Source: Variovorax sp. J22G73 (lineage in GTDB: Bacteria; Pseudomonadota; Gammaproteobacteria; Burkholderiales; Burkholderiaceae_C). From it: a stretch of 64,000 nt of DNA. Below the pieces are notes generated by a model. That model was given only the letters and a program-made list of their open reading frames with translations, searched no databases and was not told the origin of the DNA. Below, piece after piece: positions 57,959-64,000 of this stretch (positions are counted from its first letter, which is position 1; each line of letters starts with the position of its first letter). The translations under genes and the position numbers were made by a program. Where the stretch lies: NCBI RefSeq assembly GCF_030317035.1, contig NZ_JASZYK010000001.1, positions 1,488,001-1,552,000 on the forward strand, given 5' to 3'.

Positions 57959-59218
<1,260 letters not shown>

Positions 59219-59257
59219 TTGCCCCTGCATTTGCCGACACCTTCGGGTGTCCGCCGA

Positions 59258-59574: not shown

Positions 59575-59872
59575 ATGACGATCGCGCGCCGAGCCTTGTT
59601 CGGCAAGCTCAACCTCACCTTGTTTCGCGGCATCGAATCCGCGACGGCGTTCGCGAGGCTGCGAGGCAATCCCTACGTTGAACTGACGCATTGGATCCAC
59701 CAACTCTGGCAGCTCAACGACAGCGATCTGCATCGGATGTGCCGCCACTACAAGGTCGATTCGCAAACGGTCGAGAAAGACCTGGCGTCTTCACTGATGA
59801 CGCTGCCTTCGGGGGCGACCTCGCTGAGTGACTTCTCGCATCACATCGAAGCCGCCGTGGAGCGCGCGTGGG
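59575..59872 (+). pseudogene. tssH: tssH/clpV, 5' fragment only
   Basis: The first 99 or so residues match the N-terminal domain of ClpV, the AAA+ ATPase that disassembles the contracted type VI sheath: RRALFGKLN, ESATAFARLRGNPYVELTHW, DSDLHRMCRHY, SDFSHHIEAAVERAW. After W99 the ClpV frame should continue with about 780 more residues including both ATPase modules; instead the sequence switches at about 59870-59875 to the 3' end of tssC in another frame. The ClpV frame then runs on without meaning to 60171. Inactive as written. Confidence 0.85.
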
Positions 59873-60166
59873 TACCTGAAGTGCATCGTGCGCGACAAGA
59901 TCGGTTCGTTCAAGGAGCGCGAGGACATGCAGCGCTGGCTCAACGAATGGATCATGCATTACGTCGATGCCGACCCCGCCAATTCCTCGCAGGAAACCAA
60001 GGCGCGGAGGCCGCTCGCCGCCGCCGAGGTCGTGGTGGAGGACATCGAGGGCAACCCGGGCTACTACAGCGCCAAGTTCTTCCTGCGGCCTCACTTCCAG
60101 CTCGAAGGCCTCACCGTCTCGCTGCGACTCGTCGCCAAGCTGCCGTCGCTCAAGGAAGCGGCCTGA
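59873..60166 (+). pseudogene. tssC: tssC (sheath large subunit), 3' fragment only
   Basis: The frame beginning YLKCIVRDKIGSFKERED and ending VSLRLVAKLPSLKEAA is the last 97 residues of TssC (VipB), the large contractile-sheath protein, out of about 490-500. The N-terminal 80 percent and the usual tssB are missing. It is one base out of frame with the ClpV fragment before it, so no fusion protein forms. The next gene, hcp, is the normal neighbour of tssC, so the tssC-hcp joint is native. Confidence 0.87.
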
Positions 60167-60291
60167 GCTGATCTCAGGCACCGCACGTCATTCGAGGAAG
60201 AGGCACGCAGATGCCTCCGACCCAACCGCTCAGTGCGCCGACCAGAGCGCTCGAGCATCTGTCACATCACAACAAAGTTCAGGGAGTTTTC

Positions 60292-61578
60292 ATGGCACAA
60301 GACATTTTTCTGAAGATCAACGGCATCGAGGGTGAGTCGCAGGACAGCGACCACAAGAACGAGATCGAGGTCCTGGCCTTTAACTGGAAGGCCTTCCAGG
60401 AATCAACCATGCATGCCGGCTCGGGCGGCGGCGCCGGCAAGGCCACGGTGGAAGACCTGGAGTTCGACCACTACGTGGACCGGTCAAGCCCCAACCTCAT
60501 GAAGTACTGCCTCACCGGCAAGCACGTGCAGGAAGCGAAGCTCACTGTCCGCAGTGGCGAGGAGACCTCCTTCGACGATGCGACGGCGTCGCTCGCACGC
60601 TTTTCGGTGTTCGACACCGAACTGCGCGATGCGAACTCGCTCGGGCAAGGACCGAAGACGGTGCAGCTTTCCAGGCTGCGCCTGCGGCTGTTGCCGCAGC
60701 GGGAACTCACCGACGCCTGGATCGGCCTTCCGCTCGCCAGGATCACGGTGCTTCGCTCCGACGGCAGCGTCGCCATCGATCCGCACCTGATTCCTCCGGT
60801 CGCAGGCTACGGAGCAAGCCCGTTGTTGACGGACTGGGTCACCAACCTGCACGGCCTGTGCCGGCTGCGCGCCCAGTCGCTGGCGGCCCGGCTCAGCGGC
60901 AACGATGGCAAGTCGAGTGAATCGGCGGAGGTGTCCGACTTCCTGCTGCTGCAGATACTCAATCGATACGAATCCTTGTTCGAGCACTGGCTACGCGTTC
61001 GGGAGACTTCTCCGGAAGCGGTCTACACGGCACTGCGGACGCTGAGTGCGGAACTTGCCACCTTCGTGCGACCGAGCACGCGACGGCCCGCTGCGCATCC
61101 GGCCTACCAGCATGCGGACCCGTACCTGTCTTTCCGGGAGCTGATCGGCGACGTGCAGGCCATGCTGAACGACGTGCTGGTGCGCAGCGCTCAAAGCATT
61201 CCTCTGGCCAACCGTGCGAATGGCGTGCGTGTTGCCAGTGTCGAACCGTCCGAGCTTCAGAGCTTCTCGAGCCTGGTTTTCGCAGTGGCGGCACACACGC
61301 CTCCCGAGCAACTTGCAAGCCAGTTTCCTGACCGCTGCAAGGTCGGTCCGAGCGACCGGCTCGCCGAGCTCATCCGCTCGCACCTGCCGGGGATTCCGCT
61401 GCAGACGCTCCCTGTGCCGCCGCGCCAGATTCCTTTCAACGCGGGCTTTGTCTACTTCCAGATCGACCCGCGGGGCCCGCTCTGGGAGCACATGGTCAAG
61501 CACGGTGGCCTGGCATTGCATGTCGCGGAAGAGTTCCCGGGACTGCGGCTGGAGCTCTGGGGCGTGCGAGAGAAATGA
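60292..61578 (+). CDS. chimeric Hcp (N-terminus) - TssK (C-terminus)
   Basis: An uninterrupted 428-residue frame. Residues 1-88 are the N-terminal half of Hcp (MAQDIFLKINGIEGESQD, GKATVEDLEFDHYVDRSSPNL, KHVQEAKLTVRSG); residues from about 93 on are the baseplate protein TssK without its first roughly 110 residues (FDTELRDANS, LRLRLLPQRELTDAW, FLLLQILNRYESLFEH, LPGIPLQTLPVPPRQIPFN). The joint is near 60553-60570. CAGGGAG precedes ATG 60292; an in-frame ATG at 60211 lacks a site. The Hcp part lacks the strands needed to close its ring, so neither function is expected. Confidence 0.85.
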   Translation: MAQDIFLKINGIEGESQDSDHKNEIEVLAFNWKAFQESTMHAGSGGGAGKATVEDLEFDHYVDRSSPNLMKYCLTGKHVQEAKLTVRSGEETSFDDATASLARFSVFDTELRDANSLGQGPKTVQLSRLRLRLLPQRELTDAWIGLPLARITVLRSDGSVAIDPHLIPPVAGYGASPLLTDWVTNLHGLCRLRAQSLAARLSGNDGKSSESAEVSDFLLLQILNRYESLFEHWLRVRETSPEAVYTALRTLSAELATFVRPSTRRPAAHPAYQHADPYLSFRELIGDVQAMLNDVLVRSAQSIPLANRANGVRVASVEPSELQSFSSLVFAVAAHTPPEQLASQFPDRCKVGPSDRLAELIRSHLPGIPLQTLPVPPRQIPFNAGFVYFQIDPRGPLWEHMVKHGGLALHVAEEFPGLRLELWGVREK

Positions 61579-61594
61579 CGGAGCAAAGACGCCA

Positions 61595-63667
61595 ATGACG
61601 ACCCCCATCACCAGCCTGCAGAAGGAATACATCCGTCTGCTCGACGGCAGCGCCGCTGCCATGACGATTGCCGGCGCGGACATCGCCCCCGGGGCCTTCG
61701 TCGGCGTTGCCTGGCGGAACCTCACGTTCACCGGATGCGACTTCGCGGGTGACGGAAACATCAAGCTGAGCTCGATGACCGACTGCACGTTCATCGACTG
61801 CAGGTTCCTGGCGCCGAGGCACGACTTCGGCGTGATGGCGAATGTGCGTTTCAGCCAATGCAGATCGACGGGCCGCTCGATCTTCGGCGGTCGCGACGGA
61901 AGCACCGGCGTGGCGTTCGAGGGTTGCACCTTTGCCGGCGGTGACGCTACGCCGGCCGGCTACGAGGGAATCGGCTGCACTGGCGAGGTGGTGTTCCGCA
62001 ACTGCGTTGGCGCCGGAGACCTGCTGGTGGCCGGCACGCGGCTGACCATCGAGGCCTTTCAAGGCATGAAGGGACAGCGTTCTGCAGCGCAGGGTCGGGA
62101 GGGCTTGAGAGCCCAGGTCGAAACCGAACTGGCGTTGCTCAACGACCGACTGGCCGCCGGGTTGCATTCGCGGCTGAACGAGGAATTCGACGTCGACCGC
62201 CGCAAGCGATTGTTCGCCTTACCGCAAGAACTCGCCGGCCTGGCCGAGCCGCTGGTGCTCATGCTCGACGAAATTTTCCTGGCCTCGCGCTTCGACCGCA
62301 CGCAGGTGCAGGACATGCTGCGAGGTGTTTATTTCACCAGCGGCTCGCAGGCCGAATCGGACCTGCCGGCCGTGCCGGGCACCGTGTTCCAGCGGCTTCA
62401 ACGCGGCTTGGGTATTTCGTCGTCGCGAGCCGATGGCGCGACGCCTGCGCGCGGCGGGCAGAGCTACTTTCTCCAGGACGTGCTGACCAAGGTGATCATT
62501 CCCGAGGCTCATCTCGTGAGGCCGAACCTGCGCTGGGAGTTCCGGTTTCGCCTGTTGCGCTTCACGGGGCACGCGCTTTGCATCGTGATTTTTCTGTGGT
62601 TGGCCAGTGCGCTCGCGCTGAGCTTCGGCAACAACAAGCAATACCTGAGCACGGTGGGCCAACGCGTCGACTTGCTGTCCGGTCAGGTTCGCGCGCTGTT
62701 CGCCAGCTTCAAGCCGATGGGCGTTCCCGATGTGCTCAACGGCGCCAGCGAGCTGCCGGGCTACCCAGGCCTCGACATCGCGCATCCGCCGGGTGGCTTT
62801 CTGTACGGCCTGTACACGGTGCCGCCGGTGCTCGAGGCGACGCATGAAACCTACGCCCAGTTGCAGGACCACATGCTGATGCCCTCGATCCTGAAGCGCA
62901 TGGAGGCGGTGTTGACGCAGAGCGTGAAAGACGGCGACGCCAAGACGGCTTATGAAGCGCTGCGGGTCTACAAGCTGTTGCACGACCGGGATCGGTACAT
63001 GAGTGGTGGCGCGCGAGACGTTCGCAACTGGGTGCTCAAGGACTGGGAGGCGGCCGACAGCGCCGCAGCATTCGGCGGGCGCGCGTCGATGGTCGGCCAT
63101 GTGACGGCCCTTTTCTCCGGCGAGCGTCCCGCACAGTCGGTGTCGCTGCCCAACGAAGCCTTGGTGGACGACCCGACGCGCAAGCAGCAGAACGATCTCT
63201 TGCTGGAAGATGTCCGCCGCCAGTACCTCACCGAGTACGCCCGCCATTGGGAGGCTTTCCTCGAGTCGGTGCGCACCGTGAGCGGTAGCGACACCACCGG
63301 TACCAGCCTGGGCTTCGATCTGAACGTGCTGCGGCAGTTTGCCGCGCCCGATTCGCCGTTGGCGCGGCTGGTGCGCGCGGCCGCCCGGGAGACCACACTG
63401 TCGCGGCCATTGGCTGTTCGGGCGCAGGAGGAGAAGGGCTTTCTCGACAAGGCCACGGACGAGCTCAACAAGCAGACCAGCGCCATCGGCGGGGGTCTTG
63501 GCATTCGTGCCGAAGAGCGGCTCGAAAAGCAGATCGTGGACAACCGCTTCGCCGCGCTTCGCGAAGTCGTCACAGGGCAAGCCGACATCGGCGCGAGCAG
63601 CGTCGGGCAGCCATGTGCGTATCGGTCCGCCGCGCGTCCGCTCCGGCGAAACGAAAACCTCCGATAG
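61595..63667 (+). CDS. chimeric beta-helix-like protein - TssM fragments
   Basis: A single 690-residue frame of several pieces. Residues 1 to about 160 form a repetitive right-handed beta-helix or pentapeptide-like protein (LTFTGCDF, CTFIDCRFL, VAFEGCTFAGG, VVFRNCVGAGDLLV). From about 161 it is TssM (IcmF-like inner-membrane complex): RLNEEFDVDRRKRLFALPQEL, PEAHLVRPNLRWEFRFRLLR, one membrane helix (CIVIFLWLASALAL, about 330-346). The TssM N-terminal helices and NTPase P-loop are absent. At about V524 (63164-63167) an internal stretch, about 100 residues in relatives, is missing; the text resumes at RRQYLTEYARHWEAFLES. After GQADIGA (about 63595) the frame is foreign and stops at 63667. Confidence 0.82.
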   Translation: MTTPITSLQKEYIRLLDGSAAAMTIAGADIAPGAFVGVAWRNLTFTGCDFAGDGNIKLSSMTDCTFIDCRFLAPRHDFGVMANVRFSQCRSTGRSIFGGRDGSTGVAFEGCTFAGGDATPAGYEGIGCTGEVVFRNCVGAGDLLVAGTRLTIEAFQGMKGQRSAAQGREGLRAQVETELALLNDRLAAGLHSRLNEEFDVDRRKRLFALPQELAGLAEPLVLMLDEIFLASRFDRTQVQDMLRGVYFTSGSQAESDLPAVPGTVFQRLQRGLGISSSRADGATPARGGQSYFLQDVLTKVIIPEAHLVRPNLRWEFRFRLLRFTGHALCIVIFLWLASALALSFGNNKQYLSTVGQRVDLLSGQVRALFASFKPMGVPDVLNGASELPGYPGLDIAHPPGGFLYGLYTVPPVLEATHETYAQLQDHMLMPSILKRMEAVLTQSVKDGDAKTAYEALRVYKLLHDRDRYMSGGARDVRNWVLKDWEAADSAAAFGGRASMVGHVTALFSGERPAQSVSLPNEALVDDPTRKQQNDLLLEDVRRQYLTEYARHWEAFLESVRTVSGSDTTGTSLGFDLNVLRQFAAPDSPLARLVRAAARETTLSRPLAVRAQEEKGFLDKATDELNKQTSAIGGGLGIRAEERLEKQIVDNRFAALREVVTGQADIGASSVGQPCAYRSAARPLRRNENLR

Positions 63668-63683
63668 CGAAGGCGCAGCGTGA
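63606..63683 (+). pseudogene. 3' end of the gene preceding tssG (probably tssF)
   Basis: In a different frame from the TssM fragment, about 25 residues (GSHVRIGPPRVRSGETKTSD to EGAA) end at TGA 63681-63683, which overlaps the GTG of tssG as GTGA. Tight coupling to tssG and usual cluster order suggest this is the tail of tssF. The body of the gene is missing. The identity is inferred from position, not from a recognised motif. Confidence 0.5.
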
Positions 63684-64000
63684 GTTCCGACGCCACGCAC
63701 GTTCTTTCACCGATGTTGGCTCGGTTGCGTCAGGCGCCGTGGCGGTTTGGCTTTTTTTCCTTGTTGCGGCGATTCGGCGCGTCGAACGCCCAACATCCTC
63801 CCATCGGGCTGGCGAGCCGCCCGCAGCAGGAGCCGTTCAGGCTGGGGCAGGCGGCTGCCTTGATCTTCGCGCCTCGCGAGATTGCCGAGGCCGTGCTGCC
63901 CGGCGAGGCAGACGACCGGCCCCCCGGCAGCGCCAGTCGGCGATCAGGAAACAACCCGCTGCTTCCGATGGTGCGCGTGTACGGCCTGGGCATGCTGGGA
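63680..64000 (+). CDS. tssG: type VI secretion baseplate subunit TssG, partial
   Basis: The window ends inside this gene; 107 codons are visible. GTG at 63680 overlaps the preceding stop. LRQAPWRFGFFSLLRRFG followed by GLASRPQQEPFRLGQAAALIFAPREIAEA and, after a Pro/Asp-rich insert, VRVYGLGMLG is the standard TssG N-terminal pattern. TssG forms the baseplate wedge with TssF and TssE. Whether it is intact cannot be seen. It is the only type VI gene here with a normal N-terminus and no visible break. Confidence 0.85.
   Translation, partial: MSSDATHVLSPMLARLRQAPWRFGFFSLLRRFGASNAQHPPIGLASRPQQEPFRLGQAAALIFAPREIAEAVLPGEADDRPPGSASRRSGNNPLLPMVRVYGLGMLG

What the first reader, a model, noticed from the sequence alone, without database searches (positions are those of the whole stretch)
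59575..64000. A type VI secretion locus reduced to a chain of joined gene fragments
Within 4.4 kb the plus strand reads ClpV start, TssC end, Hcp start, TssK end, beta-helix protein, TssM middle, TssM later part, tail of a gene, TssG start. The order is that of a normal cluster with several blocks cut out; each joint is abrupt and without filler. At least five separate deletions are needed. Surrounding genes are intact. Three of five joints stay in frame, which is not far from the one-in-three expected by chance, so I do not claim selection for the fusions. Either this strain has lost its apparatus by repeated deletion, or the assembly is wrong here.
Basis: partly seen in the sequence, partly recalled or inferred. 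Interest (0 to 1): 0.88.

Follow-up and report, generated by a model that had tools for sequence, protein, structure and literature searches.

The report
Type VI secretion cluster with internal deletions
In this bacterium (genus Variovorax), one of three toxin-injecting machines has been cut down to a row of joined gene pieces, most likely by several recent deletions sealed by end-joining repair; it is a vivid but basically ordinary case of gene loss, unless raw reads show an assembly error.

Summary
Between icd and tssG the window carries, in order, the start of clpV, the end of tssC, the start of hcp joined in frame to most of tssK, a cut pentapeptide/beta-helix-like gene joined in frame to the middle of tssM, a second tssM piece, and the last ~23 codons of a tagK-like gene; tssG and tssA follow full length. 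Five joints remove about 11 kb that intact Variovorax clusters keep, and that DNA is not elsewhere in the assembly. tssE and tssF of this system sit intact at a second site. No match in congeners runs across the joints. In 618 kb compared with a complete congener, 3 of 3 close-up breaks seen in this locus cut genes; 0 of 11 elsewhere do. There are no Ns; shared bases at the joints are 0-6 nt; the genome has five Ku and three LigD genes. Two other T6SS clusters keep their core genes. The pieces have no stops or frameshifts and only slightly raised dN/dS, so the loss is very recent, perhaps one burst. I judge real deletion by end joining most likely (0.72), an assembly fault possible (0.2), functional fusions unlikely. 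Raw reads would decide.

The parts
57959..59218 (+). icd (isocitrate dehydrogenase; name recalled, no family search run), intact left flank
   Evidence: 419-aa ORF; 91% DNA identity over 58001-59219 with G014
59575..59872 (+). clpV/tssH, first ~99 codons
   Evidence: TIGR03345 positions 2-110 of 852; 86% aa identity with E3 over 99 aa
59872..59873 (.). Joint 1: clpV to tssC; 4.23-4.26 kb missing against E3, IB41, 770b2, PgBe293 and EL159 (rest of clpV, tssB, start of tssC); ~1 nt shared; out of frame
59873..60166 (+). tssC, last 97 codons
   Evidence: TIGR03355 positions 384-473 of 473; 96.9-100% aa identity in 10 of 11 relatives, 92.8% in G014
60292..60553 (+). hcp/tssD, first 87 codons
   Evidence: PF05638 positions 1-86 of 129; 98.9% aa identity with E3
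60553..60556 (.). Joint 2: hcp to tssK, in frame; 1.2-1.3 kb missing in eight of nine relatives, 0.68 kb in G024 (end of hcp, tssJ as seen in E3, start of tssK); ~2 nt shared
60556..61578 (+). tssK, about the last three quarters (340 codons)
   Evidence: PF05936 positions 92-429 of 429; 90% aa identity with E3
61595..62056 (+). pentapeptide/beta-helix-like gene, first 154 codons of ~220
   Evidence: 80% aa identity with OK212, 68% with G024, where the protein has 226 aa
62053..62057 (.). Joint 3: pentapeptide-like gene to tssM, in frame; 2.7-2.8 kb missing against OK212, NBRC103145 and G024 (end of that gene, tssL, start of tssM); 0-1 nt shared
62057..63163 (+). tssM, middle part
   Evidence: TIGR03348; 79% aa identity with E3
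63162..63166 (.). Joint 4: internal tssM deletion of 0.29-0.34 kb, in frame; 5-6 nt shared
63164..63607 (+). tssM, later part
   Evidence: 83% aa identity with E3 over 148 aa
63600..63612 (.). Joint 5: tssM to the tail of a tagK-like gene, out of frame; ~2.8-2.9 kb missing in eight of nine relatives, 6.3 kb in G024 (end of tssM, tagF, most of tagK); ~3 nt shared
63612..63683 (+). tagK-like gene, last 23 codons and stop, overlapping the tssG start
   Evidence: DNA match to PgBe293; both peptides begin HVRIG, and the PgBe293 and IB41 proteins carry the TagK domain NF033419
63680..64000 (+). tssG, intact; runs past the window to window-equivalent 64798, followed by full-length tssA (64819-65817), then genes named clpS and clpA from memory of the sequences
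   Evidence: TIGR03347 positions 2-300 of 300; TIGR03363 for TssA, below its cut-off as also for G024's TssA

Best explanation
This is a real, very recent loss of one of three type VI secretion systems in a Variovorax strain. Five internal stretches (0.3-4.3 kb each, about 11 kb in all) were cut out of the main cluster and the ends sealed directly, as bacterial Ku/LigD end joining or microhomology joining would do, leaving an ordered chain of gene pieces. The machine should not work: tssB, tssJ and tssL are gone and clpV, tssC, hcp, tssK and tssM are cut. Its tssE and tssF, at a second site on contig C34, and tssG and tssA remain whole. The strain tolerates the loss because two other T6SS clusters keep their core genes. 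Shown: gene identities, joints, absence of the missing DNA from the assembly, confinement to this locus within 618 kb, intact flanks. Inferred: that the DNA really looks like this in the cell, the end-joining mechanism, the age, the assignment of the C34 genes to this system, and tolerance through redundancy.
For: Collinear intact clusters in congeners. Missing stretches of the E3 cluster match elsewhere in the assembly only at 65-79% identity, apart from matches of about 50 bases or fewer. Over 618 kb against complete congener G014, 3 of 3 close-up breaks in this locus cut genes at both ends and 0 of 11 others do; 349 of 355 G014 ORFs with an orthologue are full length and 4 of the 6 partial ones are here; no Ns. 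No match in 24 other genus genomes runs more than a few bases across joints 3-5. Joints share 0-6 nt. Five Ku and three LigD genes over cut-off. C4 and C32 hold homologues of ClpV, TssB, TssC, Hcp, TssK, TssL, TssM, TssE, TssF and TssG. tssE and tssF on C34 are open over 172 and 626 aa, the latter 86% identical to the TssF inside G024's cluster.
Against: No reads could be examined. Five large deletions with no stop or frameshift in the ~3.9 kb of pieces is unusual for ordinary decay and is also what an assembly fault would give. Own-branch dN/dS is 0.113 (bootstrap 0.084-0.149) against 0.063-0.089 in nine relatives, a weak rise; that of the full-length tssG and tssA is also slightly the highest (0.207 against 0.093-0.185). 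Ku and LigD are general in the genus, so they do not single this strain out.
Confidence: 0.72

Rival explanations
1. Assembly fault: the cluster is whole in the strain, but poorly covered stretches were dropped and contig ends joined without gap letters.
For: No secondary decay in the pieces; clean joints; tssE, tssF, tssG and tssA all still whole; reads not available.
Against: Five breaks in 4.4 kb, while none of the 11 other close-up breaks in 618 kb cuts a gene, and no Ns. Missing parts have G+C 0.63-0.70 in E3, overlapping the retained parts at 0.60-0.69. Shared bases at joints are 0-6 nt, shorter than overlaps assemblers normally need (recalled). Completeness 99.99%.
Confidence: 0.2
2. 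The in-frame joints (Hcp::TssK, pentapeptide-like::TssM) are kept because the fusion proteins have a use.
For: Three of five joints are in frame and the fused ORFs are open over 428 and 690 aa.
Against: 3 or more of 5 in frame is expected with P = 0.21. No match in other species runs across the joints, and own-branch dN/dS is not lowered.
Confidence: 0.04
3. Slow decay of an old dead cluster by many independent deletions over a long time.
For: Multiple deletions; slightly raised dN/dS on the own branch.
Against: The TssC piece is 96.9-100% identical in protein in 10 of 11 relatives and the Hcp piece 97.7-98.9% in 8 of 11; no stops or frameshifts; estimated neutral share of the branch only ~4% (0.6-8%), my arithmetic.
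Confidence: 0.04

Closest known systems
Loss of T6SS loci in bee gut symbionts (PMC8125069; passages read)
   Same: T6SS clusters are lost by deletion; [quoted passage not shown]
   Different: Here five internal deletions leave pieces in order with no visible pseudogenization of the rest
Loss of H1-, H2- and H3-T6SS clusters in Pseudomonas aeruginosa (PMC11751169; passages read)
   Same: Loss of one of several T6SS clusters in strains with redundancy
   Different: In the passages read the missing H1 and H3 clusters are part of deletions of over 100 kb and the H2 deletion takes almost only T6SS genes; no chain of retained pieces is described there
Disabled T6SS of classical Vibrio cholerae (PMC8578542; passages read)
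   Same: Inactivation of structural T6SS genes, partly by deletions
   Different: There small (8-12 nt) deletions and frameshifts; here cuts of 0.3-4.3 kb only

Membership tests
Decayed type VI secretion cluster | Homologues of core tss genes in cluster order | tested here: met
Decayed type VI secretion cluster | At least one essential core gene missing or truncated | tested here: met
   tssB, tssJ, tssL absent from the locus; clpV, tssC, hcp, tssK, tssM truncated
Decayed type VI secretion cluster | Secondary decay (stops, frameshifts) in the remaining genes | tested here: not met
   None in the pieces. Common in decayed loci but not required, so membership stands
Functional type VI secretion system | Complete core set TssA-M plus ClpV | tested here: not met
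   Main cluster broken; no third full-length ClpV or tssB/tssL copy of this system found. tssE and tssF are whole on C34
Ku/LigD end-joining scars | Joints with little or no homology in a genome that encodes Ku and LigD | tested here: met
   0-6 nt shared; five Ku and three LigD over cut-off
Ku/LigD end-joining scars | Dependence of the deletions on Ku or LigD | not testable with these tools
   Needs mutants
Assembly artefact | Joints not supported by reads | not testable with these tools
   No reads held

The most novel reading that the evidence does not exclude
All five deletions arose in one local event, a small bacterial counterpart of chromosome shattering: a stretch of about 15 kb was broken at several places and only some pieces were religated, in the original order and orientation, by an enlarged Ku/LigD end-joining set (five Ku over cut-off, tied with G015 for the most among 61 Variovorax genomes searched).
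Probability: 0.2. Interest if true: 0.65.

Novelty: new member of a known kind. Interest (0 to 1): 0.33.

Why it matters
If real, it catches the loss of a large secretion machine so early that the deletion scars are readable before point mutations have blurred them, while the system's separate parts (tssE, tssF, tssG, tssA) are still whole; and it offers a natural case for asking whether bacterial end joining makes clustered deletions in one step. If an artefact, it warns against reading fused T6SS genes such as Hcp::TssK from this assembly as new proteins.

Tried and rejected
Searches showed that five close relatives have no tssE or tssF between tssM and tssG (of the clusters looked at, only G024's has them there) and that the own genome has a third, whole tssF on C34; two searches showed that the tail belongs to a tagK-like gene.

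Functional fusions: no statistical or comparative support. Repeat-mediated deletion: the two sides of each joint share only 0-6 nt; the repeat scan of the own region shows no long repeat at a joint but cannot see a copy lost with the deletion. No IS search was run; the pieces abut without filler. G+C-driven coverage gaps: missing and retained parts overlap in G+C. A first count of private amino-acid changes gave more changes in the own TssM (23) and TssK (8) and TssA (12) than in the nine relatives, which speaks for relaxed constraint, but it is confounded by branch length and synonymous saturation, and its pooled row was empty because some relatives lack pieces; I used the branch-wise dN/dS. 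An ORF list by length alone picked wrong frames and was replaced by codon-scored ORFs. The excess of shared bases (P = 0.011 for a sum of 11 or more) is weak: the joint ends are inferred from relatives that differ at about 15-25% of bases, and the sum is my own reading. The Fisher value (0.003) uses only the 3 joints visible against G014. The promoter/terminator scan and PADLOC search found nothing.

Results that blur the control: 2 of the 6 partly matched G014 ORFs and 6 of the 7 partly matched own ORFs lie outside this locus; of 11 mirror events (gap in G014) two cut one own ORF at one end; gene cutting was judged by codon-scored ORFs with a 60-base margin. I did not examine these cases.

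Literature: the listings (titles and starts of abstracts) show no paper describing such a chain of joined T6SS pieces; passages only were read in PMC11481896, PMC11751169, PMC8125069 and PMC8578542.

Full report
Where it is. The window is contig C1:1488001-1552000 of an 8.39-Mb genome in 35 contigs (99.99% complete). Of 16 named relatives of the tssM part, 13 are labelled Variovorax, two Pseudacidovorax and one Leclercia; Variovorax sp. E3 is handle G007, by its 33,475-base contig 76.

The observation. Profile searches identify the T6SS pieces: ClpV start, TssC end, Hcp start fused to most of TssK, a weakly recognised pentapeptide/beta-helix-like gene fused to the middle of TssM, and the TssG start. 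Taken together the intact relatives show the order clpV, tssB, tssC, hcp, tssJ (E3), tssK, pentapeptide-like gene (some), tssL, tssM, tagF (E3), tagK-like gene, tssG, tssA. Aligned to E3, the own sequence jumps at five places and is otherwise collinear from icd past tssA. About 4.25, 1.2, 2.7, 0.33 and 2.8 kb are missing; the third figure is from OK212, NBRC103145 and G024, since E3 lacks the pentapeptide-like gene there. Joints 2, 3 and 4 are in frame, joints 1 and 5 are not. tssG and tssA are full length beyond the window's end.

The rest of the system. In E3, OK212, PgBe293, IB41 and 770b2 no tssE or tssF was found in the held stretch of the cluster with G024's proteins as queries. The own genome has three tssF genes over the cut-off, on C34, C32 and C4. 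The C34 copy has tssE beside it; both are open (626 and 172 aa) and are 86% and 72% identical to the proteins inside G024's cluster. I infer that they belong to the cut system and have outlived its main cluster.

Is the missing DNA elsewhere? Searching the own assembly with the E3 cluster in two halves found the retained pieces and flanks at high identity; within the missing stretches it found only paralogues at 65-79% identity, mainly on C4 and C32, and matches of about 50 bases or fewer. The C4 and C32 clusters have ClpV genes over the cut-off and homologues of TssB, TssC, Hcp, TssK, TssL, TssM, TssE, TssF and TssG (tblastn with G024 proteins); TssA matches over most of its length in C32 and in part in C4. 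TssJ, VgrG and PAAR were not tested there.

Is it local? I compared 618 kb of contig C1 with 640 kb of complete congener G014. Of 519 G014 ORFs of at least 100 aa, 349 have a full-length orthologue, 6 a partial one and 164 none or a low one; 4 of the 6 are tssC, hcp, tssK and the pentapeptide-like gene. Of 14 places where the own sequence closes up (gap up to 60 bases) while G014 has 150 bases or more extra, 3 are joints 1, 2 and 4, each cutting genes at both ends; the other 11 cut none. Joints 3 and 5 did not register because of divergence. Neither stretch holds an N. In the mirror direction 342 own ORFs are full, 7 partial (one of them Hcp::TssK) and 156 none or low.

Is it private? In one search, 24 of 41 genomes (own included) match the region and no match outside the own genome crosses joint 1 or 2. 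In one search, 25 of 101 genus genomes (own included) match the tssM part at E up to 1e-20 and no match runs more than a few bases across joint 3, 4 or 5; two of these (G101, G111) show one-sided fragments only. In one search, 14 of 16 loci match only from residue 155 (joint 3) on; in the other two (L056, L059) the match starts 27 and 11 residues earlier but runs on in TssM itself, so neither has the fusion.

How old? The pieces contain no stop and no frameshift against 4 to 12 relatives, depending on the piece. Own-branch dN/dS over the TssC, Hcp, TssK and TssM pieces (1041 codons) is 0.113, bootstrap 0.084-0.149, against 0.063-0.089 on nine relatives' branches. Taking their mean of 0.078 as the constrained value, about 4% (0.6-8%) of the branch was neutral (my arithmetic). 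With 2.8% of substitutions making a stop, the absence of stops alone is compatible with some tens of neutral substitutions. So the event is recent, and five large cuts stand against no small disabling change. That fits a burst, a single complex event, or an assembly fault better than slow decay.

How made? Bases shared at the joints are about 1, 2, 0-1, 5-6 and 3, slightly above random joints (mean 0.78 each; P about 0.011 for a sum of 11 or more). The genome has five Ku genes over the cut-off and one weak match; among 61 Variovorax genomes searched G015 also has five, and 58 of 61 have at least one. It has three LigD genes over the cut-off, G015 five, and six other genus genomes in that call one or two. 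End joining is thus general in the genus; the larger number here is a lead, not proof.

Verdict. The finding is accurate and its cautious interpretation is supported. I hold real, recent deletion of a redundant T6SS cluster by end joining as most likely, an assembly error as the main rival, and useful fusions as unlikely. T6SS loss by deletion is documented (PMC11751169, PMC8125069, PMC8578542; passages read); the chain of several fresh internal cuts is the unusual part.

Noticed in passing
G000 C34:106899-109396 (L131 10899-13396): A whole tssE-tssF pair away from the main cluster, most similar to the tssE and tssF inside G024's cluster: in this genus the system seems split over two sites in some species and joined in others.
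   Followed up: partly
G000 C4:113411, C13:92876, C15:44150, C23:621181, C5:106066 (Ku); C4:110453, C5:86965, C15:40512 (LigD): Five Ku and three LigD genes over cut-off in one genome; five Ku is tied with G015 for the most among 61 Variovorax genomes searched.
   Followed up: partly
window 61595-62056; L031 12435-13115: A pentapeptide/beta-helix-like gene found after tssK in OK212, NBRC103145, G024 and G014 but not in the held stretches of E3, IB41, 770b2, KBW07, PgBe293, ZS18, EL159 or the YR752 MAG; a variable accessory gene of unknown role, with a weak match of the own frame to anti-phage HalA.
   Followed up: partly
L029/L030 (Variovorax sp. E3 contig 76): The clpA and clpV reading frames appear broken in this draft contig, so E3 may carry sequencing errors; other relatives were used beside it.
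   Followed up: no
L059 (record labelled Leclercia adecarboxylata MAG UBA3338): A TssM relative (43% identity in the best segment) in a record labelled as an enterobacterial MAG, unexpected among Variovorax hits; possibly a mislabelled bin or another T6SS type.
   Followed up: no
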